This document shows, piece after piece, positions 30,673 to 41,121 of a DNA stretch of 41,217 bases (its first letter is position 1; each line of letters starts with the position of its first letter). The translations under genes were made by a program, and so were the position numbers. The stretch lies in NCBI GenBank assembly GCA_025455005.1, contig JALONH010000028.1, positions 1 through 41,217 of the forward strand, in the 5' to 3' direction. This DNA comes from Cytophagaceae bacterium (lineage in GTDB: Bacteria; Bacteroidota; Bacteroidia; Cytophagales; Cytophagaceae). The notes under the pieces are model-generated. The model saw nothing but the letters and a program-made list of their open reading frames with translations, did no database searches and was not told the DNA's origin.

Positions 30673-30934
30673 TTTATATACTCATGCTCAAATATCTATT
30701 GTTCAGTAGGTTGGCTCTTTGGTTTGAAATCGGTATCTTAGAAAGTATAAGAAATATATATATATGCATCAGGTGTATGTATATTAATGTTGGCAGCAAG
30801 CCTAAAAAAACGACACAACAACTATAAACGAGACATTGTAACCATCGGACTTTGACATCTTGACCAAGCAACGGACCGACAATTTCGCTGAAACTCGACA
30901 CATACTTATTTGCCGACACTCATACCGACCCAGT

Positions 30935-30978
30935 GGTTTTAAAAATTTTTCCCACCGCACATTTTAAAAAATAATTTT
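30935..30978 (+). repeat. Left copy of inverted repeat flanking the island
   Basis: Two blocks, GGTTTTAAAAATTTTT (30935-30950) and ATTTTAAAAAATAATTTT (30961-30978), recur exactly, in inverted orientation and mirrored order, at 40909-40924 and 40878-40895. The spacers differ (10 and 13 bases) and are not conserved. Confidence 0.8.
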
Positions 30979-30990
30979 CTGCCAGCCCGC

Positions 30991-31055
30991 ATTTTGCACA
31001 TTTGGTTTTGCCCGACACACAAGTCCGACCCTTCGCAAAACCAAAAGAGCAAAAT
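30991..31055. repeat. Long imperfect hairpin upstream of the island operon
   Basis: The 21-base arms at 30991-31011 and 31035-31055 are reverse complements with 2 mismatches, around a 23-base loop. Key blocks are ATTTTGC and TTTGGTTTTGC in the left arm. It ends about 37 bases before the putative operon promoter. Confidence 0.8.
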
Positions 31056-31091
31056 TTCCCCACCACACGGTGACAGTTTCAAAATAAAGGG

Positions 31092-31099
31092 TATATTTG
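31092..31099 (+). promoter_or_regulatory. Putative promoter of the island operon (TATATTTG)
   Basis: TATATTTG matches TAnnTTTG and lies 28 bases before the XRE start codon. No -33 TTTG at standard spacing. Between box and ATG, GACAA (31099-31103) and TTGTC (31120-31124) form an interrupted inverted repeat that could be the XRE protein's own operator (inference). Confidence 0.5.
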
Positions 31100-31127
31100 A
31101 CAAGTCTGTCCAAAACAATTTGTCTAA

Positions 31128-31427
31128 ATGAGCAACGTAACATTCGGGGATTACATTAGGAAACGAAGAGAAGAAAAGGAGCTTCCATTGCGGAAGGTTG
31201 CTGCACATCTCGACATTGACACTTCAACTTTGAGTAAAGTAGAGAGAGGAGAACGACCAGCTTCACCAGACTATCTAAAGCCATTGGCAGAAATACTGGA
31301 ACTGGACTTAAAAGAAGTTCAAACGACTTTCATTGCCGACAAAATCAACAAAGACTTTGGAGGCTTGGAACATTTGCCAGAAGGATTAAAAGAAGCAGAG
31401 AAACAACTTAAAAGAAGAAAAAAATAG
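31128..31427 (+). CDS. XRE-family transcriptional regulator of the island
   Basis: A 99-residue protein with a lambda-repressor-type HTH (about residues 6-62): 'FGDYIRKRREEKELPLRKVAAHLDIDTSTLSKVERGERPASPDYLKPLAEILEL', including the helix 2-turn-helix 3 'RKVAAHLDIDTSTLSKVERG'. The C-terminal 35 residues are helical and basic ('EAEKQLKRRKK') with no sensor domain. The stop codon TAG is directly followed by the helicase ATG, so it is the first gene of the cassette. Such regulators often repress restriction or defence operons until modification is established; here that is inference from position. Confidence 0.88.
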   Translation: MSNVTFGDYIRKRREEKELPLRKVAAHLDIDTSTLSKVERGERPASPDYLKPLAEILELDLKEVQTTFIADKINKDFGGLEHLPEGLKEAEKQLKRRKK

Positions 31428-34400
31428 ATGCCGACTAAGTTTTTTACAAATCAAGACGATAACAGCTTGCTCAAAAAGTTTGAGGGAGTATTTACGAATA
31501 TTGACAGTATTCGTCATTTTGATGCACTCGTAGGCTATTTCAGAACTTCAGGTTATTTTAAGGTTCGTGTATTCCTTGACAAGATTCCACGAATAAGAAT
31601 TTTAGTAGGCATCAACGTTGACCAACTCATTAAGAAGTATCACGACAAAGGACAACTTTACTTACATAACCCCGATGAAACAAAAGCAGACTTTTTAGAA
31701 GAAATCATCAACAACATTCAGGAAGCGGACTATGACGAAGTAACCGAAAAGGGAATCATTCAATTCATTGAAGACCTCATTAGCGGCAAGATTGAATTAA
31801 GAGCACACCCCAAAAAGAAAATTCACGCTAAAGTTTACATTTTCCGAACTGCATCATTCAATGAATATGCTCCATGCGAAGTTATTACGGGTTCATCTAA
31901 TCTGACAGATGCTGGACTTGGTGCAAACCCTGAATCCAATTACGAATTCAATGTAAGTCTTCGTGACTATGAAGATGTAAAATTCGCAACAGAAGAATTC
32001 GAAAGACTTTGGAACGAGTCTGTTCCAATACTTCATGCAGAAGCGGAAGCCATCAGAAAGAAAACCTATTTGCGTGATGACTTCACTCCTTTTGAGCTGT
32101 ATGTCAAAATGCTGATTGAGTATTTCGGCAAACGAGTGGAATACGACCCATTTAACATTGACTTATTACTCCCTGACAAATTCATGCGTTTGAAATACCA
32201 ATCAGATGCAGCGAATCAGGGTTACGCTATCATGATGAAGCACAACGGCTTTATTCTGGCTGATGTGGTTGGTTTAGGTAAAACCATTATCGCCTGCATG
32301 GTAATAAAGAAATTCATTTACGAAAACGGCACTCATTCAAAAATCCTCATCGTAGTGCCTCCGGCATTGGAAGCGAATTGGCGAAGAACCACTGAAGATT
32401 TCCAAATCAAAAATCATTTTGAGTTCATTACGCTTGGTAGTTTGCATAAAATCCTGAATGAAGACAATTACAGCTATTCCAATGCTGACAAGTTTGATTT
32501 GATTGTGGTGGACGAATCACACAAGTTCAGAAACGACTACACTGAAATGTATTTGGCTTTACAGGAAATCTGTAAGAAACCCAGAAGCCGTCCTTCAGAA
32601 AATGGTGACTCAAGAAAAAAAGTTATTCTCATTTCGGCAACACCTCTCAACAATAGACCGCAGGACATTGAAAATCAACTCTACCTGTTTCAAGACAAAC
32701 GAAACAGTACATTAGAAAATATTCGCAACCTCCAAGATTATTTCAAACCGCTGAACGAACAATATAAGAAACTGGCTGCTGAAAAAACACTCAATATCAA
32801 AAAACTGAAATCACTATTCCAAAAATTAAGGGATGATGTTGTTGAACCTTTGGTAATTCGAAGAACAAGAACGGACATAGAAAAGAACAAGGAATATCTG
32901 GACGACATGAAAAGTCAGGGCATCATCTTCCCAAAAGTAGATGACCCCATTTCATTGTTCTATGAGTTAGATGGCAAACTGGCAACCCTGTTTTATGAAA
33001 CTGTTTCCTTAATCACCGGATTGGACGAATACGGAAATGAAACAGACGGCTTGGGTTATTATCGTTACCGTGCCATTGAATTTTTAGCCAACGAGGAAGA
33101 CAAAAAGATATACGGTAACGTAAAATCAATTTCAGGACGCTTAAGTGCCATCATGAAAACGCTATTGGTAAAGCGTTTGGAAAACAGCTTTTTTGCTTTT
33201 GCACAGTCCATCAATCGCTTTCAACGAGCCATTGAAAACATGATTGAAATGTTTGAAAATGATAGGGTATTTGTTGCGCCTGACCTTGACATCAATAAAC
33301 TACTGGAAGAAGGCTTGAGCTATGACCAGATTGAAGCCAAAATAAACGAGAAGGGCGGAAACAATAAGGAGTTTAAAAAATCGGCATTCGATAAAAAGTT
33401 TATTGCACTCCTAAAATCTGATAAAGAAAAAGTGGACGATTTGGCTTTGCGTTGGAGTAAAGTAAAAAAAGACCCGAAACTTGAAGCATTTAGTAATAAA
33501 CTGAAAACGGAATTTTTCAAAAGCAAAAAGCATAATCCAAGCGGACAATTGGTAATCTTTTCTGAATCCAAAGAAACAGCAGAGCAGTTATCCGAGCAAA
33601 TCAGAAAGGACTTCCAATTTCGTGTGTTGACCGTTAGTGCAGATAATCGAAAAACCGTTGAAAACATTCTTAGGGAAAACTTTGATGCTAACCTTGAAGA
33701 AGAAAAATGGAAAAGCGATTATGACATCATCATCACCACAGAGGTTTTGGCAGAAGGTATCAACCTTCACCGAAGCAATTTGATTGTGAACTATGATGTG
33801 CCTTGGAACGCTACACGTTTAATGCAACGCATTGGTCGTGTGAACAGGATTGGTTCAAGAGCGGAACAGATTTTCGTTTATAACTTCTATCCCTCGGCAC
33901 ATGGTGACGAGCAAATCAAGTTGGTAAATAATGCCCTTAGAAAATTGCAATCCTTCCACACCGCTTTTGGTGAGGACAACAAAATCTTCTCCTTACTGGA
34001 AGAAAAGGGTGATGGTGCTTTGTTCGGCAACAAAATTCAAAAAGAAGAAAGCGAGATTCTGAATTATCTCAACGAGTTAAGAGACTTCAAAAAGAAGCAC
34101 CCGAAGCGCTTTGCAGAAATTTCAAAAATCCCAAATAAAGCAAGATGCGGAAGAAAAGCGGACGAAGGACATCAACTTACTCTGGTGGAAGCGGAAATGG
34201 GTGAAATAAACTATCCACTTCAAAGTACTTCACTTACTTATCTGAAAAGCGAAAACCATCCGGGCATTTTCTGTTTGATTACACCTGACTATAACATCAT
34301 TGAATTAAATTTCCTGCAGGCAGTTAAAGTCTATAAAGCAGAAGAAGCAGAAAAGGTAGTTCCGCTGCATGCGCAGCATTACGAGCAAACGGTAAAAGGA

Positions 34401-34787
34401 CTTGATTACTTTAAATCAGAAAAAAATCAGGAGAATGTGCAAACCATTTCCCGCAAAAATCTAAGTCCTGCGGAAAATAAAGCCATCACCAACATTAATG
34501 CTATCATCAAAGTAGCACCTACCGAACAAAAAAGAATGGCTTTGCAACGAGCACTCGACCTGATAAAAAAGGGAACTTATGGCTCCAAAGGTTTACCAAA
34601 ATCAATCAACGACTTTTTTGTTGCCAATGCCAAATTACTTAAAGAACCACCCAGGTTTGTGGAACAACTCTTTATTGACTTGCTTGATAGCTACGACCTT
34701 TCATCCAATGCCGAAGCAAGTGAAGAAAAAAGAAAAGGGCAAGGCATCGTGAATCCTAAAATTGTTTTAACGCAAAGCTTTATTTAA
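31428..34787 (+). CDS. PLD-family nuclease domain fused to SNF2-type helicase (Hma-like helicase)
   Basis: 1119 residues. Residues about 1-200 form a phospholipase-D-like domain with one HxK site, His133 and Lys135 in 'IHAKVYIF', followed by 'ITGSSNLTDAGL'; such single-HKD domains act as nucleases when dimerised. The helicase core follows: motif I 'GLGKT' (282-286), motif II DESH (362-365), motif III 'SATP' (403-406), and motif VI 'QRIGRVNRIG' (Gln800-Arg807 region) after 'TTEVLAEGINLHRSNLIVNYDVPWN'. A long insert (about 430-640) lies between the two RecA folds, and about 250 C-terminal residues are unassigned. It likely translocates on DNA and may cut or remodel invading DNA. No other clear nuclease is seen in the cassette, so the PLD domain is the best candidate effector. 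Confidence 0.88.
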   Translation: MPTKFFTNQDDNSLLKKFEGVFTNIDSIRHFDALVGYFRTSGYFKVRVFLDKIPRIRILVGINVDQLIKKYHDKGQLYLHNPDETKADFLEEIINNIQEADYDEVTEKGIIQFIEDLISGKIELRAHPKKKIHAKVYIFRTASFNEYAPCEVITGSSNLTDAGLGANPESNYEFNVSLRDYEDVKFATEEFERLWNESVPILHAEAEAIRKKTYLRDDFTPFELYVKMLIEYFGKRVEYDPFNIDLLLPDKFMRLKYQSDAANQGYAIMMKHNGFILADVVGLGKTIIACMVIKKFIYENGTHSKILIVVPPALEANWRRTTEDFQIKNHFEFITLGSLHKILNEDNYSYSNADKFDLIVVDESHKFRNDYTEMYLALQEICKKPRSRPSENGDSRKKVILISATPLNNRPQDIENQLYLFQDKRNSTLENIRNLQDYFKPLNEQYKKLAAEKTLNIKKLKSLFQKLRDDVVEPLVIRRTRTDIEKNKEYLDDMKSQGIIFPKVDDPISLFYELDGKLATLFYETVSLITGLDEYGNETDGLGYYRYRAIEFLANEEDKKIYGNVKSISGRLSAIMKTLLVKRLENSFFAFAQSINRFQRAIENMIEMFENDRVFVAPDLDINKLLEEGLSYDQIEAKINEKGGNNKEFKKSAFDKKFIALLKSDKEKVDDLALRWSKVKKDPKLEAFSNKLKTEFFKSKKHNPSGQLVIFSESKETAEQLSEQIRKDFQFRVLTVSADNRKTVENILRENFDANLEEEKWKSDYDIIITTEVLAEGINLHRSNLIVNYDVPWNATRLMQRIGRVNRIGSRAEQIFVYNFYPSAHGDEQIKLVNNALRKLQSFHTAFGEDNKIFSLLEEKGDGALFGNKIQKEESEILNYLNELRDFKKKHPKRFAEISKIPNKARCGRKADEGHQLTLVEAEMGEINYPLQSTSLTYLKSENHPGIFCLITPDYNIIELNFLQAVKVYKAEEAEKVVPLHAQHYEQTVKGLDYFKSEKNQENVQTISRKNLSPAENKAITNINAIIKVAPTEQKRMALQRALDLIKKGTYGSKGLPKSINDFFVANAKLLKEPPRFVEQLFIDLLDSYDLSSNAEASEEKRKGQGIVNPKIVLTQSFI

Positions 34788-34789
34788 AC

Positions 34790-34805
34790 CCCTCGAATTC
34801 GAGGG
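34790..34805. promoter_or_regulatory. 16-base perfect palindrome before the KilA-N gene
   Basis: CCCTCGAATTCGAGGG, perfect two-fold symmetry centred on GAATTC, 2 bases after the helicase stop and 27 bases before the KilA-N ATG. It could be an operator for a dimeric DNA-binding protein or a weak hairpin. It marks the only real gap (45 bases) within the operon. Confidence 0.6.
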
Positions 34806-34832
34806 ATTTACAAAGAGCAAAATAAATCTTAC

Positions 34833-35651
34833 ATGGCAAAAGGGCGAAAAATACAAGTAAAGAAGACCGAGATAACCGTCATTTTTAAAGATGAAACGGA
34901 TTTTATTAGCCTTACAGATATGACTGTGGGATTTAATGAAGGTAGTGGTTTAATCGGGAAGTGGATTACCAATAAAAACACTCTGGAATACCTTGGCACC
35001 TGGGAAAAAATCAATAATCCAATTTTTAATTACCCTGAATTCGGGGTAATTGAGAAAGAGGCTGGAGTTAACCGATTCATCATGTCTGCGGGTCAATGGA
35101 TTGAACGAACCAATGCTTCAGGAATGCTGGTGAGGCCCGGACGCTATGGAGGCACCTATGCTCATCAGGACATCGCTTTTCATTTTGCTATGTGGCTTAG
35201 TCCGGAGTTCCAGATTTACCTCGTAAAAGAATTCCAACGCCTGAAAGAGGATGAAACCAGCCGAAACAAACTCGAATGGAACCTGCAACGCACCCTTGCT
35301 AAAGTAAACTATCGAATCCATACCGATGCTATTAAAGAGAATCTGATTCCGTCTGCATTGCCAAAAGAGAAAATCAACTTTATGTATGCCGATGAAGCCG
35401 ATTTGCTGAACATGGCTTTGTTTGGAATGACTGCCAAACAATGGAGAGATAACAATCCGGATACAAAAGGGAATATTCGTGATGAAGCTACTATTGAACA
35501 ACTTGTGGTATTAAGCAATCTGGAAAGTATCAATGCCGTGCTTATTCATCAGGGTCTATCCCAGCCTGAAAGACTGACGCAGCTCAACAAGATCGCCATC
35601 ACACAAATGAAATCTTTACTTGGCAATAAAAATTTAAAGCAACTGAAATAA
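34833..35651 (+). CDS. KilA-N domain DNA-binding protein
   Basis: A 272-residue protein. An N-terminal KilA-N domain (about 20-125) is recognised by 'DFISLTDMTVGFNEGSGLIGKWITNKNTLEYLGTWEKINNPIFNYPEFGVIEKEAG', then 'ITNASGMLVRPGRYGGTYAHQDIAFHFAMWLSPEFQIYLVKEFQRLK'-type residues typical of phage antirepressor-like KilA-N proteins. The C-terminal half is helical and resembles the ORF6N/antirepressor C-domain seen in Bacteroidota ('INFMYADEADLLNMALFGMTAKQWR'). KilA-N proteins bind DNA, often in phages. Its stop overlaps the methylase start (TAATG), so it is coupled to the methylase. It is not part of the usual helicase-methylase-ATPase core; it may be an accessory sensor, regulator or specificity factor, or a phage-derived decoy (all inference). 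Confidence 0.85.
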   Translation: MAKGRKIQVKKTEITVIFKDETDFISLTDMTVGFNEGSGLIGKWITNKNTLEYLGTWEKINNPIFNYPEFGVIEKEAGVNRFIMSAGQWIERTNASGMLVRPGRYGGTYAHQDIAFHFAMWLSPEFQIYLVKEFQRLKEDETSRNKLEWNLQRTLAKVNYRIHTDAIKENLIPSALPKEKINFMYADEADLLNMALFGMTAKQWRDNNPDTKGNIRDEATIEQLVVLSNLESINAVLIHQGLSQPERLTQLNKIAITQMKSLLGNKNLKQLK

Positions 35652-38600
35652 TGGCTAACAGAATACAAATACAAACCGCTTTACAAAAGCCTTACGACAG
35701 GATACTTTTTGGAAAAGAAGTATTAAGCCCGGTTTTCGGTTCATGCTTCAATTTGAGCAGCAGTACAGTTCCTGCTTCGGTGCAGCCCAATAAATCGGAG
35801 CAAGCCGTTATTCAATCCGTTTCCATTTATGGTACCATCAATCTGGAAGACGGAACGGAAATAACCTGCTATGAAATCAATCTCCAACCCTCGGTTCGCA
35901 TTGAACACAGCAAGGTGGCGATTCAGCGATATGTAAGAAAGTTGCTTACTGCCGGACAAATTGCTTTGGTAAATTTCATTGCTCCGCAAAATAAAAAGGT
36001 TTGGCGTTTGACTTTGGTTGCCAAAGACAGTGAATTGACTGAACAAGGAATTAAAGAAAAAACTACAAATGCCAAACGCTACACGTACCTTTTAGGTCCT
36101 TCGGAAACGTGCAAGACAGCCGCTGAACGCTTTGAATCGCTTAGCACCGAAAAGCAAATCACTTTTCAGGCATTAGTGAATGCGTTCTCCGTTGAAAAAC
36201 TCAGCAAGGCATTCTTTGACGAATACACCCTGCATTACCAAAAGTTTTGCGATTATTTACAGGAATCTAATTTTAGAAAATCGGTTTTCAAAATCACCAT
36301 TCCGGCAAATGCCACTAAAGAAGAAAAAGACAAAGCCTGCAAACCCATTCGGGATTTTGTAAAGAAACTATTAGGCCGTATCGTGTTTCTTTACTTTGTG
36401 CAGAAAAAAGGTTGGCTGGGTGCAAGCGACACCAACTATAAAGACGGACTGACTGATTTTATTAAAAATCTGTTCTCTCAAGCCGGTGGTAACGACACTT
36501 TTTATCCAAACTGGCTCACGGTGCTGTTTTTTGAAACTCTGAACAAAGAACGCAGTAATGATGACTTTCAAATGCCGGACGGCAAAAAAGTAAAAGTTCC
36601 TTTTCTTAATGGAGGTTTGTTTGACAAGGAAGATTATGACGAAGCAGTGCTTTCACTTCCTGCCAAACTTTTTCATCATACCGATTTTGAAGATACCCTG
36701 CTCACCGAAAAGAACAGGGACAATGCAAGAGGCTTCCTCGACTTTTTAGATGCGTTCAATTTTACCGTGCATGAAGACAGCCCTGACGACCATACCGTAG
36801 CGGTTGACCCCGAAATGCTCGGGCATATTTTTGAAAACCTGCTTGAAGACAACAAAGACAAAGGTGCTTTTTACACGCCAAAAGAAATTGTGCATTACAT
36901 GTGTCAGGAAAGTTTAACGGAATACCTGACCACCCATTTAAGCAAGGAATACACGGTTTACAAAGAGATTGGCAACGCACAAGTTGAACTGTTTGGCAAC
37001 GAAATCAAAACAGGGCAATTGAAAATGGTGGAGCAATTGGGCGACAAAGCGCTGAATCGTGATGATGTAGCCTTCATTGTAAAACATAAAGACATTAGCC
37101 ACTTAACCAAAGCCCAATTAAAGAAAATTGACGTTTTGTTAGACATGGTAAAGATTTGTGATCCTGCCATTGGTTCGGGAGCTTTCCCCATGGGTTTGTT
37201 GCAGGAAATACATGCCATAAAAGAAGTAATTGCCTACGAACTGCTACAGACCTGGAAACCGGCTGATGTAAAGGAAAACATTATCCAAAACTCAGTGTAT
37301 GGTGTGGACATTGAAAAAGGTGCTGTTGACATTGCCCGTTTGCGTTTTTGGCTGAGTTTGGTAGTGGACGAAGAAAAGCCAAGAGCCCTTCCCAACCTTG
37401 ATTATAAAATTGTTGTGGGCGACAGTTTGGTGAGCAAGTTTGAAGAAGAGATAATTGAAATTGATTGGGAACGCAAAAGCAGCGTAGGCAAGGCAGACAC
37501 TTTTGTGCAAAACATACAGCGTTTGCTAAAGGAGATTGCCGAAAAGCAAAAGAAATTCTTTAAGCCCGACAACAATGACAAAAAGAAACTGCAAGCTGAA
37601 ATCCGCAATCTGAAACTCGAATTGCTGATTAACCAATTATCCTTTAACAAGGAAAAATTCTTCGCTAGTAATGCAGAGAAAGGGGGATTTGCTCCAACTG
37701 CAAGTGATTTAAGGTATAACGAAGAGCTGAAACAAAAGAAAAAGGATTTTGACAGGCATATTGCCAAACTGCAAAAACTGAAACAAAACGAAGAAGAGCC
37801 GTTTGATCATTTTGATTGGAAACTGGACTTCCCGGAAGTGCTTAATCCTTATCTGGTGAATGGAAATGCAGGATTTGATATTGTTATTGCTAATCCACCT
37901 TATGTTGATATAAAAAATCTTCCCCCAGAACTAGTTGATATTCTTTTTCAAAAATTCAAAACAACAGAGAATAGAATAAATCTTTACTCAATATTTATCG
38001 AGAAAGGATGGGAGATAACAAATTCGAATGGTAACTTATGCTACATAAACCCTAATTCTCTTCTCCTAAATAGTTCTTATAAAAAAGTAAGAAAATTATT
38101 AGTTCAAGACCTTCTTAAGATAATTAAACTACCTGATGACATCTTTATAAACGCAATTGTTGAAACTATCATAATTCAGGCAAAAAAGAATTCCTCATCA
38201 GAATATGTTTTGGGGGCATTTTATAAAAACAATGAAAATATCGATTTTGAAAGACTGAACTTCAAACAGTTTTATACACAGGATTGGGTAAATGATTCTT
38301 CTTGCCGATTTAATATTTTTATCTCAACTGAAGCAAATAAGCTCCTTCAACAAATAGAAAATTCGGAAGTTGAACGTTTAGACAATTATTATGAAATAAC
38401 GCTTGGTATTACTCCCTACGATAAATATAAGGGTCATTCAAAAAAATTAATCGAAGAAAAAGGATTTCATTCTAAAACAAAGATTGACAAATCCTATGTT
38501 CCACTTATCTCCGGAACTAATGTTCTAAAGTATTTTATTGATAGTTCTGTCAATGAATATCTTAGATATGGTGATTGGTTGGGAGCGCCAAGACAAAAAA

Positions 38601-39241
38601 AGTTCTTTACATCCCCACGAGTTATAGTAAGACAAATAATTTCAGGAAATCCACCAAGCATTTATGCTGGCTATACAGAAAAAGAATTGTATCATACTCA
38701 GATTGGGTTTTCAATAATTAAGAAAGAAAAGAGTGAATATTCAGCAAAGCTATTGTGTGCATTATTAAACTCTTCTGTATTAAATTTTTACCACAGATAT
38801 AAATACACTGACCCAGAGAAAAATGTTTTTCAGAAAATTTTAATAGAGAATTGTAAAGAGTTACCGATAAAGAAAAATATTTCAAAGTCACGCATAAAAC
38901 CATTTGAAAGTGTAGTTGACTATATCATTTTTCTAAAATCCCATAAGCTTGATAATCCTTCCGACCAACTCATGCCCACCTACTTCGAGCAAATCATTGA
39001 TGGTATGGTGTATGAGTTGTATTTCCCAGAATTGATTAAAAATCACAAAAGGGAAATCATACAGCACCTTGGCGAGCTGCCGGAGTTTACCGACAAAATG
39101 AGTGATGAGCAGAAAATGAAATTCTGCAAAACGGTTTTTAACCGCTTAAATGACCGTGAGCATCCTGTGAGAGTGAATTTATTTTACATGAGTTCCATTC
39201 CAGAAATCGCAATCATAGAAGGTAAGAATGAGAATAACTGA
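35651..39241 (+). CDS. N6-adenine DNA methyltransferase (Eco57I/PglX-like)
   Basis: 1196 residues. Motif I is 'DPAIGSGAF' (Asp504-Phe512), motif IV 'NPPY' (748-751), separated by a 240-residue charged helical insert ending 'HFDWKLDFPEVL', the usual layout of Eco57I/PglX-type gamma methylases. The N-terminal 480 residues carry the 'GHIFENLLEDNKDKGAFYTPKEIVHYMC' pre-motif helix and no clear PD-(D/E)XK nuclease motif, so it appears to be a methylase only. The C-terminal half has a TaqI-type target-recognition domain ('YYEITLGITPYDKYKG', 'FTSPRVIVRQIISGNPPSIYAG'). It should methylate adenine in a specific site to mark self. From about 37,865 to 38,945 the gene is far more AT-rich than its flanks, suggesting exchange of the recognition region. 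The start overlaps KilA-N by one base; the end overlaps the ATPase by 14. Confidence 0.92.
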   Translation: MANRIQIQTALQKPYDRILFGKEVLSPVFGSCFNLSSSTVPASVQPNKSEQAVIQSVSIYGTINLEDGTEITCYEINLQPSVRIEHSKVAIQRYVRKLLTAGQIALVNFIAPQNKKVWRLTLVAKDSELTEQGIKEKTTNAKRYTYLLGPSETCKTAAERFESLSTEKQITFQALVNAFSVEKLSKAFFDEYTLHYQKFCDYLQESNFRKSVFKITIPANATKEEKDKACKPIRDFVKKLLGRIVFLYFVQKKGWLGASDTNYKDGLTDFIKNLFSQAGGNDTFYPNWLTVLFFETLNKERSNDDFQMPDGKKVKVPFLNGGLFDKEDYDEAVLSLPAKLFHHTDFEDTLLTEKNRDNARGFLDFLDAFNFTVHEDSPDDHTVAVDPEMLGHIFENLLEDNKDKGAFYTPKEIVHYMCQESLTEYLTTHLSKEYTVYKEIGNAQVELFGNEIKTGQLKMVEQLGDKALNRDDVAFIVKHKDISHLTKAQLKKIDVLLDMVKICDPAIGSGAFPMGLLQEIHAIKEVIAYELLQTWKPADVKENIIQNSVYGVDIEKGAVDIARLRFWLSLVVDEEKPRALPNLDYKIVVGDSLVSKFEEEIIEIDWERKSSVGKADTFVQNIQRLLKEIAEKQKKFFKPDNNDKKKLQAEIRNLKLELLINQLSFNKEKFFASNAEKGGFAPTASDLRYNEELKQKKKDFDRHIAKLQKLKQNEEEPFDHFDWKLDFPEVLNPYLVNGNAGFDIVIANPPYVDIKNLPPELVDILFQKFKTTENRINLYSIFIEKGWEITNSNGNLCYINPNSLLLNSSYKKVRKLLVQDLLKIIKLPDDIFINAIVETIIIQAKKNSSSEYVLGAFYKNNENIDFERLNFKQFYTQDWVNDSSCRFNIFISTEANKLLQQIENSEVERLDNYYEITLGITPYDKYKGHSKKLIEEKGFHSKTKIDKSYVPLISGTNVLKYFIDSSVNEYLRYGDWLGAPRQKKFFTSPRVIVRQIISGNPPSIYAGYTEKELYHTQIGFSIIKKEKSEYSAKLLCALLNSSVLNFYHRYKYTDPEKNVFQKILIENCKELPIKKNISKSRIKPFESVVDYIIFLKSHKLDNPSDQLMPTYFEQIIDGMVYELYFPELIKNHKREIIQHLGELPEFTDKMSDEQKMKFCKTVFNRLNDREHPVRVNLFYMSSIPEIAIIEGKNENN
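37865..38945 (+). other. AT-rich segment of the methylase covering motif IV and the target-recognition region
   Basis: Sixty-base samples here have about 23-38% GC (for example 38041 and 38221, each about 23%), against about 47% at 37021 and 40% at 39121 in the same gene. The changes occur just before NPPY and just before the conserved C-terminus. Coordinates of the edges are approximate. Confidence 0.7.
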
Positions 39242-40787
39242 TATTAAAATAACCAACTACCGTGCTTTCTATGGCGAGCATCACATCCAGTTAGACAAGG
39301 ATGGAAAGAATCTCATGCTATACGGTGAAAACGGAAGCGGTAAAAGTTCGCTATTCACCGCCATGAAGGATTTTTTTCTGGCATCAGTAAAAAAGTTGCC
39401 TGAATTGGAAGAAAACATCTTTCTGCCTGCTTCAAAAAAGAACACTGCCAAAATTGAAGTTACCCTAAAAGAAAATTCTGATTCAAGCAAAAACATAGTA
39501 TTTGAACTCAATGCCGTTCAAAAGGAAATTGTAAGTGCCGATAAAATACTGATTTCGGATGCCAACAAAATCAAAGGATTTTTTGATTACCGCAACCTGC
39601 TTAAAACTCACCTTAACCACAAAGCACAGGTTGACCTTTTTGAAATTATTGTCAGTGAAGTATTGTACCATTCCATCAATCGTTTTTCAATAAAGGAAAT
39701 TGGCAAAGAGTGGGAAGCGATAGTTGACGACACTTTCAATAAAACACAAACTAAACGGGTTCAAGAAACTACCAAGAACTATCTCAAAGACAAATTCAAT
39801 CCGGGCTTAAAGGAAATACTGCAATCCATCGAAAGCGATACCAATACGTTTCTAAAATACTTCGGCATCAACCTGAACGTAAAACTTGAGTTTGACAAGG
39901 TGGAGTATTTCGGAAGGCGAATGTTGAAAGGGCAAAACATCAATCTTAAAATTGACTTTTTCACAAAGCACATTCCTAAACACCAGCATTTCCTGAACGA
40001 AGCAAGATTAACAGCATTAGCGATTAGTTTGTATCTCGCATCCATCAAAGTAAATCCGACAAAAGGAGCATTGAAAATCCTTGTGCTGGACGATTTGCTT
40101 ATTGGTTTGGACATGAGTAATCGTTTGCCACTACTTGAAATCCTCAAAAACCACTTCGTTGACGTAAAAGCAGACGACCGCTTTCAAATTATCATGACCA
40201 CTTACGACAAAGTGTGGTATGAATTGGTGAAAAGCTATTTCGGTGAAGAACAATGGAAATTTGTTGAAGTGTATTCCAAACGATTGAATGATGATGACTT
40301 TGAAATTCCCATCATCAAACACGACAATGGTTATTTAGACAGAGCGAAACATTACCTGACAGAAAAGGACTTTAAAGCATCAGCCGTTTACATACGGACA
40401 GAGTTTGAACGCTTGGTTAAAACCATCTGTGACAAACAGAGAATTCCGGTTGCTTATAAGAAGAACCAAAAAGAAGTAACCAGTGACGACTTCTGGACAG
40501 CCATTGAATCACAAGCTAATCTTGACCCTGCATTGGTTAAAGAAATCAAGATTCACAGAGGTGTTGTAATGAATCCATTCAGTCACTACGACCTTGAAAA
40601 ACCTGAGTTTGAAAAGGAGCTAAAGGACACAATAGCTTCCGTAGAGAAACTGAAAGCAGAAATCGGAAACATCAAAAAGGACAAGTCCATTGACAAATTG
40701 GAAAAGGAAGTTGCAAAGCTGAACGGTGAAATTGCGGCAAAAGAAAAAATCATTGAGGGTTTAAGAAACAAACTGAAAGCGAAATGA
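39228..40787 (+). CDS. RecF/SMC-like AAA ATPase of the island
   Basis: 519 residues. The N-terminus 'MRITDIKITNYRAFYGEHHIQLDKDGKNLMLYGENGSGKSSLFTAM' contains an ABC/SMC-type Walker A (Gly33-Ser41). A signature-like helix 'LNEARLTALAISLYLA' (Leu256 on) and Walker B 'ILVLDDLLIGLD' (Asp288, Asp289) follow, with a helical insert between. The C-terminal ~170 residues contain a conserved helical domain ('ASAVYIRTEFERLVKTICDK') and end in a coiled coil ('LEKEVAKLNGEIAAKEKIIEGLRNKL'). There is no long SMC arm and no Toprim (OLD) nuclease domain. It begins inside the methylase end (14-base overlap) and closes the operon. A role as ATP-driven DNA sensor or clamp with the helicase and methylase is inferred. 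Confidence 0.88.
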   Translation: MRITDIKITNYRAFYGEHHIQLDKDGKNLMLYGENGSGKSSLFTAMKDFFLASVKKLPELEENIFLPASKKNTAKIEVTLKENSDSSKNIVFELNAVQKEIVSADKILISDANKIKGFFDYRNLLKTHLNHKAQVDLFEIIVSEVLYHSINRFSIKEIGKEWEAIVDDTFNKTQTKRVQETTKNYLKDKFNPGLKEILQSIESDTNTFLKYFGINLNVKLEFDKVEYFGRRMLKGQNINLKIDFFTKHIPKHQHFLNEARLTALAISLYLASIKVNPTKGALKILVLDDLLIGLDMSNRLPLLEILKNHFVDVKADDRFQIIMTTYDKVWYELVKSYFGEEQWKFVEVYSKRLNDDDFEIPIIKHDNGYLDRAKHYLTEKDFKASAVYIRTEFERLVKTICDKQRIPVAYKKNQKEVTSDDFWTAIESQANLDPALVKEIKIHRGVVMNPFSHYDLEKPEFEKELKDTIASVEKLKAEIGNIKKDKSIDKLEKEVAKLNGEIAAKEKIIEGLRNKLKAK

Positions 40788-40796
40788 GCCCACGCA

Positions 40797-40866
40797 GCAG
40801 TCACACACATACCACAGCCCCGCAAGGCAACCGCACAAACCAAAGCTGTGGTAAGAGTGTGCCTGC
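40797..40866. repeat. Long imperfect hairpin just after the last island gene
   Basis: The 22-base arms at 40797-40818 and 40845-40866 are reverse complements with 3 mismatches (perfect inner block TACCACAGC / GCTGTGGTA), around a 26-base loop. It lies 10 bases after the ATPase stop codon. It has no T-run, so it is not a normal Rho-independent terminator. Confidence 0.8.
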
Positions 40867-40877
40867 CCCACCCAGAC

Positions 40878-40924
40878 AAAATTATTTTTTAAAATTTCCT
40901 CACTTTCTAAAAATTTTTAAAACC
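40878..40924 (-). repeat. Right copy of inverted repeat flanking the island
   Basis: AAAATTATTTTTTAAAAT (40878-40895) and AAAAATTTTTAAAACC (40909-40924) are exact reverse complements of the two blocks at 30961-30978 and 30935-30950. The pair encloses all five island genes. Confidence 0.8.
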
Positions 40925-41009
40925 GCCACCACACAGCCAACAGAGACAGCGAAAATCCATGCAGACAGCGGACTGACAATGAAGGAGGACAGAAGGCCAG
41001 CTGTCAACA

Positions 41010-41121
41010 GCGTGTTGCCTCAATTGGCGGTGACGTGCAAAATTGAAGCTGAGTGCTCCTATCATACTTTTGTGCAGGTTGACAGTGAAGTGCTCCGAAA
41101 TCGCCAACTGCGGCAACACGC
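41010..41121. repeat. Wide inverted repeat at the right end
   Basis: The 20-base arms 41010-41029 and 41102-41121 are reverse complements with 2 mismatches (blocks GCGTGTTGCC and TTGGCG), separated by 72 bases. The interior contains the direct repeat AGTGCTCC (41052-41059 and 41089-41096). Confidence 0.7.

What the first reader, a model, noticed from the sequence alone, without database searches (positions are those of the whole stretch)
37865..38945. Methylase is a compositional mosaic: the target-recognition region is far more AT-rich than the rest
GC falls from about 40-47% to about 23-38% exactly over motif IV and the TRD, then recovers for the conserved C-terminus. This pattern fits exchange of specificity domains between alleles by recombination, as in Type I HsdS and some Type IIG/BREX methylases. 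It suggests the system's recognition site evolves by domain swapping.
Basis: partly seen in the sequence, partly recalled or inferred. Interest (0 to 1): 0.62.

Follow-up and report, generated by a model that had tools for sequence, protein, structure and literature searches.

The report
Methylase with an exchangeable recognition cassette
A bacterial DNA-methylating defence enzyme keeps its engine but has had the part that reads the DNA target replaced by recombination, and that replaced part is unusually AT-rich, as target-reading parts turned out to be in nearly all the related enzymes examined.

Summary
Observation confirmed. Exchange is strongly supported. A near-identical operon in Flavobacterium caeni matches at about 90-94% DNA identity on both sides, but has no match over 37910-38963 and lacks the KilA-N gene. 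N-terminal and TRD trees conflict, AU p about 8e-8 each. Of 39 homologue pairs with N-terminal identity of at least 0.84, 35 have TRD identity below 0.35; in 31 of these DNA similarity stops at aa 751-753, at NPPY of motif IV. The swapped unit includes motif IV and the end of the catalytic fold, not just the TRD. One inference needs correcting: AT-richness does not mark this particular swap. TRDs are AT-rich at silent sites in 63 of 65 homologues and 57 of 59 Methylase_S (HsdS-type) loci, none with z above 2, and lie below host non-coding GC in 39 of 43 genes. I infer an AT-rich TRD pool; its cause is open. Two more modules: a KilA-N cassette, and a C-terminal tail that goes with a RecF-like ATPase. 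TRD exchange itself is known.

The parts
35651..37858 (+). methylase scaffold, aa 1-736: N-terminal domain, helical region, catalytic motif I (DPAIGSGAF, aa 504-512), coiled coil
   Evidence: GC3 0.44; 96% aa identity over aa 1-600 to F. caeni L030; Pfam Eco57I
37472..37759 (+). coiled-coil segment that also differs between alleles but is not AT-rich
   Evidence: no DNA match to L030 over this stretch; CC identity 36%; family GC3 residual -0.004; helices 614-712
37760..37909 (+). conserved island with motif IV (FDIVIANPPY, aa 742-751): left recombination anchor (role inferred)
   Evidence: 80.7% DNA identity to L030 between unlike segments; similarity ends at aa 751-753 in 31 of 35 close pairs with unlike TRDs
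37859..38959 (+). AT-rich exchanged cassette: motif IV, C-terminal half of the catalytic fold, TaqI-like TRD (Pfam TaqI_C at aa 951-1073)
   Evidence: GC3 segmentation; no DNA match 37910-38963 to L030; TRD tree; Pfam
38960..39241 (+). conserved C-terminal helices and tail: right recombination anchor (role inferred); the long form of this region goes with the ATPase gene
   Evidence: 93.6% DNA identity to L030 resumes at 38964; tail/ATPase association
31428..34787 (+). PLD-like (HxK...GSxN) plus SNF2 helicase, probable restriction effector (inferred)
   Evidence: Pfam PLDc_2, SNF2-rel_dom, Helicase_C; motifs; helicase and methylase both matched in 71 of 78 loci
34833..35651 (+). KilA-N domain gene (PADLOC PDC-S22), cassette present or absent between helicase and methylase
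   Evidence: absent from L030, the gap being 34789-35649
39228..40787 (+). RecF/SMC-like ATPase, overlaps the methylase stop
   Evidence: Pfam SMC_N and Walker A GENGSGKS

Best explanation
The methylase is a conserved scaffold carrying an exchangeable specificity cassette. Homologous recombination between alleles, anchored on the left in the conserved codons around motif IV (FDIVIxNPPY) and on the right in the conserved C-terminal helices, replaces the intervening 1.1 kb (end of the catalytic fold plus the TRD). Shown here: the mosaic structure, the sharp borders, the incongruent trees and the recurrence of the left border in relatives. Inferred: that the recombination is RecA-type and anchored there, that each cassette gives a new m6A recognition sequence, and that the PLD-SNF2 helicase restricts DNA lacking that mark. 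The low GC of the cassette is best explained by an AT-rich pool of TRDs that turns over faster than host composition can be imposed on it (inferred; cause of the pool's AT bias unknown).
For: L030 operon: 91.6% DNA identity 30786-34788, 92.1% 35650-37471, none 37910-38963, 93.6% 38964-39590, 89.8% 39666-41011. Aa identity N (1-600) 96%, TRD 22%, C 92%. Conversely the TRD is 52% identical to Methylotenera L036 and 47% to Bacteroidetes L045, whose N-termini are 47% and 46% identical. Trees: win+L030 in the N-terminal tree (SH-aLRT 99), win+L036+L045 in the TRD tree (100); AU p 8.15e-8 and 7.63e-8. N-TRD Spearman 0.09 against 0.49 for N-C. 35 of 39 close pairs have TRD identity below 0.35, with the left border at aa 751-753 in 31 of the 35. 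Tandem methylases in Dolichospermum L062: 12 differences in 2118 bp, then unlike TRDs, then 94% over 187 bp. For the pool: TRD fourfold GC 0.216 against host non-coding GC 0.334, lower in 39 of 43 and not correlated with it (rho 0.17).
Against: No second strain of the host species was available, so exchange inside one population is only hinted at: 3 of 11 contigs that end in the gene end within 15 aa of motif IV. The closest TRD found is 52% identical, so no donor is identified. The coiled coil is also unlike L030 but not AT-rich, so at least two segments differ. In 13 of the 35 pairs no DNA similarity resumes inside the gene, so the right border is less constant than the left. Since motif IV is conserved by function, similarity ending there marks the border only to within that motif. 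TRD GC3 tracks scaffold GC3 (r 0.75) and weakly the other genes of the locus (rho 0.36, p 0.017), so composition is not host-independent. No word of 10 nt or more is shared by the two border regions. Methylation and restriction were not tested.
Confidence: 0.92

Rival explanations
1. The TRD diverged in place by rapid point substitution under diversifying selection, without recombination.
For: The TRD columns are mostly poorly conserved across the family.
Against: 92-94% identical DNA on both sides with none between; the TRD's closest relative found is in a Methylotenera genome; AU rejection of a shared win+L030 TRD branch; related TRDs sit on unlike scaffolds elsewhere, e.g. L082/L026 TRD 74% with N 49%, L002/L027 TRD 67% with N 50%.
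Confidence: 0.03
2. The AT-richness comes from relaxed codon selection, or from absence of GC-biased gene conversion in allelic DNA without a homologous partner (gene-conversion idea recalled, not taken from a paper read), so TRDs drift to the host's AT mutational equilibrium; exchange is real but not the cause of the composition.
For: One-sided effect: none of 65 homologues and none of 59 HsdS-type TRDs has z above 2; codon position 2 is unchanged while positions 1 and 3 shift; in the most conserved columns the TRD residual is smaller, -0.041 over 396 sites.
Against: TRD fourfold GC lies below host non-coding GC in 39 of 43; in the other conservation bins the TRD dip is -0.10 to -0.12 while the scaffold is -0.02 to +0.01; the coiled coil and the KilA-N cassette, also variable or present/absent, are not AT-rich.
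Confidence: 0.25
3. A single recent import from one AT-rich donor explains the low GC of this allele.
For: Window TRD GC3 0.23 is well below the rest of the operon, 0.40-0.53.
Against: 63 of 65 homologues in hosts of varied GC show the same dip, most with TRDs unlike this one; no close donor found in plasmids, phages, viral contigs or 395 genomes of the phylum.
Confidence: 0.08
4. The mosaic is an assembly chimera.
For: Some assemblies of this family break near motif IV.
Against: One open 1196-codon frame; the same left border separates the two methylases in the record of L062 and recurs in other pairs. Reads were not available.
Confidence: 0.02

Closest known systems
Allelic TRD exchange and domain movement in Type I S, Type IIG S and Type III M genes (PMC3077401 and PMC3983042, passages read)
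   Same: Conserved flanks, non-homologous TRDs, recombination in flanking conserved DNA, expected change of methylation motif.
   Different: One TRD inside a single-chain gamma-class methylase; the unit starts at motif IV and so includes part of the catalytic fold; no word of 10 nt or more shared between the border regions.
BREX methylase PglX/BrxX (8c45, 9ewz; PMC11341690, passages read)
   Same: Same gamma-class architecture with helical N-terminal part, NPPY and C-terminal TRD; VIA Z 27.7 to 9ewz over 674 residues.
   Different: Below the NCBIfam cut-off (85 of 500 bits for BREX-1); the neighbour here is a PLD-SNF2 helicase.
CamA, M.BseCI, M.TaqI
   Same: Best solved structures for catalytic domain plus TRD: CamA Z 30.5, BseCI 25.1, TaqI 22.4.
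   Different: Their matches begin at about residue 374-407 of the model, so the N-terminal third is not covered; operon context not compared.
Type IIG / IIL enzymes (MmeI, DrdV, BpuSI)
   Same: Single chain with methylase and TRD; PADLOC best match REase_MTase_IIG; MmeI Z 25.4, DrdV 23.2.
   Different: The N-terminal domain only weakly resembles the DrdV N-terminal region (Z 5.5) and shows no D...(E/D)xK pattern; a separate helicase with a PLD domain is present.
DISARM class I / ARMADA helicase-methylase pairs (PMC12458937, passages read)
   Same: SNF2-type helicase next to a PglX-like methylase.
   Different: DrmD match 145 bits against a cut-off of 610; the helicase here carries an N-terminal PLD-like domain.

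Membership tests
R-M genes with allelic TRD exchange | abrupt loss of identity over the TRD between conserved flanks | tested here: met
   35 of 39 close pairs with TRD identity below 0.35, 22 of the 35 with DNA similarity resuming after the TRD
R-M genes with allelic TRD exchange | TRD history differs from scaffold history | tested here: met
R-M genes with allelic TRD exchange | changed methylation motif with changed TRD | not testable with these tools
   no methylome data
DoMo (movement between two TRD sites in one gene) | repeats flanking TRDs inside the gene | tested here: not met
   no word of 10 nt or more shared by 37701-37960 and 38881-39060 on either strand
gamma-class N6-adenine methylase with TaqI-like TRD | motif I, NPPY, TaqI_C domain, fold | tested here: met
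   methylation itself not tested
Type IIG R-M enzyme | N-terminal PD-(D/E)xK nuclease in the same chain | tested here: inconclusive
   weak fold match to DrdV residues 2-142, Z 5.5; Foldseek nothing at E <= 0.001; motif scan empty
BREX PglX | score above the curated family cut-off | tested here: not met
   85 of 500 bits for BREX-1; BREX-2 and BREX-6 models also below cut-off
BREX | PglZ and BrxC partners | not tested
   only 6 proteins of the window were scanned with PADLOC
DISARM | DrmD above curated cut-off | tested here: not met
   145 of 610 bits
DISARM | DrmA, DrmB and DrmC genes | not tested
   only 6 proteins of the window were scanned with PADLOC

The most novel reading that the evidence does not exclude
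Target-recognition domains of restriction-modification methylases, in this single-chain family and in HsdS-type subunits, and in two phyla, form a common AT-rich gene pool; in this family their silent sites lie below both the genes and the non-coding DNA of their hosts. TRDs circulate between scaffolds faster than hosts can reshape them. In this family a C-terminal tail with its partner ATPase is a further exchangeable module.
Probability: 0.45. Interest if true: 0.72.

Novelty: new variant of a known kind. Interest (0 to 1): 0.52.

Why it matters
The family shows specificity exchange, through a near-constant left border at the catalytic motif, in a helicase-methylase operon that none of the libraries used here named as a whole. 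It also turns an anecdotal mark (AT-rich TRD) into a testable rule: a silent-site GC step could help locate TRDs and exchange borders from sequence alone, and it asks why recognition domains stay AT-rich in hosts of very different GC.

Tried and rejected
Donor search: the TRD was sought in plasmids (18 records, all below 60% identity, rows 25-29%), phages (19 partial matches covering 22-23% of the query), viral contigs (22 pattern matches, none confirmed) and 395 genomes of the phylum (17 with E <= 1e-20, one being the window's own, the other 16 at 26-36%). No near donor. No second copy of the TRD at E <= 0.01 in the own genome.

Conservation (selection for good codons at conserved residues) was tested as the cause of the dip and judged insufficient: in the four lower conservation bins the TRD residual is -0.10 to -0.12 and the scaffold -0.02 to +0.01; only in the top bin (396 TRD sites) is the TRD residual small, -0.041 against +0.032. 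The per-gene z scores are overdispersed: two halves of the scaffold set against each other gave z below -2 in 26 of 66 and above 2 in 3 (aa 1-367), so single z values are not strict tests; the TRD effect is larger and one-sided.

My first count of tail against ATPase missed ATPases whose open frame began upstream and split tail lengths poorly; one search replaces it.

Fold of the N-terminal domain: Foldseek gave nothing at E <= 0.001; this is not evidence of a new fold.

Literature: searches listed no paper whose title or abstract start says that TRDs are AT-rich at silent sites. Passages of PMC3751577, PMC5608340, PMC5198162, PMC11001535 and PMC10273834 were read: three give low GC of whole R-M genes or systems as a sign of horizontal transfer, none of the passages shown speaks of TRDs alone. 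Only open-licence papers are held, so this is weak evidence of absence. No name for the whole operon was found in searches (listings) or in passages of PMC12839542 and PMC12458937.
Full report
OBSERVATION. The gene at 35651-39241 encodes a 1196-aa protein with Pfam Eco57I methylase (aa 547-827) and TaqI_C (951-1073) domains. Segmentation of third-position GC puts one low segment at codons 737-1103, 37859-38959: 0.226 inside and 0.446 outside, LLR 27.3, against at most 11.4 in 60 shuffles. Among the 12 longer genes of the window tested, the next best segment has LLR 17.7. The effect is synonymous: amino-acid-matched z = -8.4, fourfold GC 0.52 to 0.18.

EXCHANGE. L030, a Flavobacterium caeni contig, carries almost the same operon without the KilA-N gene. 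DNA identity is 91.6% over 30786-34788, 92.1% over 35650-37471, 80.7% over 37760-37909, absent over 37910-38963, 93.6% over 38964-39590 and 89.8% over 39666-41011. Protein identity is 96% for aa 1-600, 22% for the TRD and 92% for the C-terminus. In the other direction, the TRD is 52% identical to a Methylotenera methylase (L036) and 47% to L045, whose N-termini are 47% and 46% identical. In trees of 25 of the 66 genes the window pairs with L030 for the N-terminal part (SH-aLRT 99) and with L036 and L045 for the TRD (100). AU tests reject win+L036+L045 for the N-terminal part (p 8.15e-8) and win+L030 for the TRD (p 7.63e-8). Cautions: the groups were chosen from identities, before the trees but not before the data; these are quick trees; the program flagged long branches, among them L045 in the N-terminal tree and L023 in the TRD tree.

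FAMILY PATTERN. I aligned 66 full-length genes, 65 of them homologues. Over their 2145 pairs (pairs with missing values left out of the correlation), Spearman correlations are 0.09 between N-terminal and TRD identity, 0.58 between N-terminal and coiled coil, and 0.49 between N-terminal and C-terminus. Of 39 pairs with N-terminal identity of at least 0.84, 35 have TRD identity below 0.35; the other four are L060/L072b, L064/L069, L021/L024 and L088/L097. In 31 of the 35, DNA similarity ends at window aa 751-753, directly at or after NPPY; the others end at 666 (L036/L071), 735 (L022/L027), 755 (L088/L092) and 759 with a further piece at 820-842 (L022/L024). It resumes within the gene in 22 of the 35: at aa 1082-1122 in 21 and at 1159 in one; in 13 it does not resume. 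Pairs share genes, so they are not independent. In L062 two tandem methylases differ at 12 of 2118 bp, 10 of them in the last 365 bp, then have unlike TRDs and rejoin at 94% over 187 bp.

WHAT IS SWAPPED. In the AlphaFold2 model (mean pLDDT 82.7) strand 742-747 precedes NPPY and the rest of the catalytic fold follows; the TaqI-like TRD is at about 905-1075 by my reading of the model (Pfam: 951-1073). So the cassette contains the C-terminal part of the catalytic domain as well as the TRD. Even between distant members DNA is on average 0.66-0.79 identical over aa 738-749 and 0.58-0.62 over aa 1116-1127 (300 sampled pairs), which could serve as recombination anchors (inferred).

AT-RICHNESS IS GENERAL. 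Amino-acid-matched TRD GC3 is below the scaffold's in 63 of 65 homologues, z below -2 in 57 and above +2 in none; exceptions are L037 and L049. The z scores are overdispersed: setting aa 1-367 against the rest of the scaffold gives z below -2 in 26 of 66 and above 2 in 3. In 20-aa bins the family residual stays between -0.07 and +0.07 up to aa 740, is -0.07 to -0.15 in every bin over 741-1100, and -0.04 to +0.03 after 1101; the regional means are +0.007 for aa 100-600, -0.004 for the coiled coil, -0.115 for the TRD and +0.001 for the C-terminus. At matched conservation the TRD stays at -0.10 to -0.12 in four of five bins and -0.04 in the most conserved bin. Control in an unrelated family: Methylase_S (PF01420, HsdS-type) TRDs against neighbouring genes, in the 30 best loci from each of two searches. 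They are lower in 28 of 30 loci of the window's own phylum (unnamed by the tool; Bacteroidota by inference) and in 29 of 29 loci from the phylum of the Methylotenera genome (one of 30 dropped for lack of neighbours); none has z above +2. Within these genes, where two TRDs were found, TRDs are below the rest of the same gene in 48 of 52; relative to neighbours the non-TRD parts sit at -0.016 and the TRDs at -0.161, the TRD being lower in 49 of 51. In 43 methylase genes with long enough loci (47 tried; the window not among them; two tandem pairs included), TRD fourfold GC (mean 0.216) is below non-coding GC (0.334) in 39 and below other genes of the locus in 40, while the scaffold does not differ from those genes (p 0.22). 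TRD GC correlates weakly with other genes (rho 0.36, p 0.017) and not with non-coding GC (rho 0.17, p 0.28). This favours an AT-rich pool over drift to host equilibrium, but TRD GC3 does track scaffold GC3 (r 0.75), so some host effect exists. Non-coding DNA was approximated as stretches without open frames of 70 codons.

OTHER MODULES. Methylases with a long C-terminal region (85 aa or more after aa 1103) have a RecF-like ATPase of the window's family directly downstream in 15 of 19 loci; those with 31-59 aa in 0 of 35 (match of at least 100 bits; Fisher 4.5e-10; 11 of 65 dropped for short downstream sequence). The four long-tailed exceptions are L049, L080, L021 (with a 40-aa ATPase remnant) and L053. 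Three short-tailed loci (L051, L090, L098) have a distant ATPase of 27-37 bits downstream, counted as absent. With phylogeny (FastTree, 55 rows, window included), 10 independent pairs, sign test median p 0.008. The KilA-N gene is a clean insertion relative to L030; a homologue lies between helicase and methylase in 5 of 71 loci with both, and elsewhere in L093 and L094. In the window neither the KilA-N gene nor the ATPase gene is AT-rich.

MECHANISM. The operon has a helicase with an HxK...GSxN PLD half-motif and a methylase of CamA/PglX-like fold. Most likely the methylase marks the host at a TRD-defined site and the PLD-SNF2 protein cuts unmarked DNA. This is inference from domains. The N-terminal domain weakly resembles the DrdV N-terminal region (Z 5.5) without a D...(E/D)xK pattern, so a built-in nuclease is undecided.

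KNOWN OR NEW. TRD exchange is established for Type I, IIG and III systems (PMC3077401 and PMC3983042, passages read). New here, as far as the limited searches listed under Tried and rejected show, are the motif-IV-bounded cassette in this family, the tail-ATPase module and the general silent-site AT signature.

Noticed in passing
34790-34805: Perfect palindrome CCCTCGAATTCGAGGG in the leader of the KilA-N gene (0.01 expected with up to 2 mismatches); the same 16-mer lies inside the KilA-N coding region of L028 and L031, and L035 has a similar piece in its leader. Possible operator or attenuator.
   Followed up: partly
L028:9900-10220: The methylase of this MAG shows a frame change right at motif IV; phase variation or assembly error.
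   Followed up: partly
L062:7971-14660 and L072:5526-13033: Tandem methylases in cyanobacterial records with similar N-termini (L062 99.4% DNA over 2118 bp; L072 85-91%) and different TRDs, apparently two specificities side by side.
   Followed up: partly
L029, L040, L047 contig ends: 3 of 11 contigs ending inside the gene end within 15 aa of motif IV (p 0.002 against uniform, chosen after seeing the data), perhaps from mixed TRDs in the sampled populations.
   Followed up: partly
37472-37759: The coiled coil between motifs I and IV differs strongly between alleles (36% identity to L030) without AT bias; a second, separate mosaic segment.
   Followed up: partly
30786-41011: The stretch shared with F. 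caeni at about 90-94% DNA identity outside the variable segments spans the whole operon and a frame of about 100 codons upstream (from about 31128) that reads like an XRE-type HTH (my reading, no search), suggesting recent transfer as one island.
   Followed up: no
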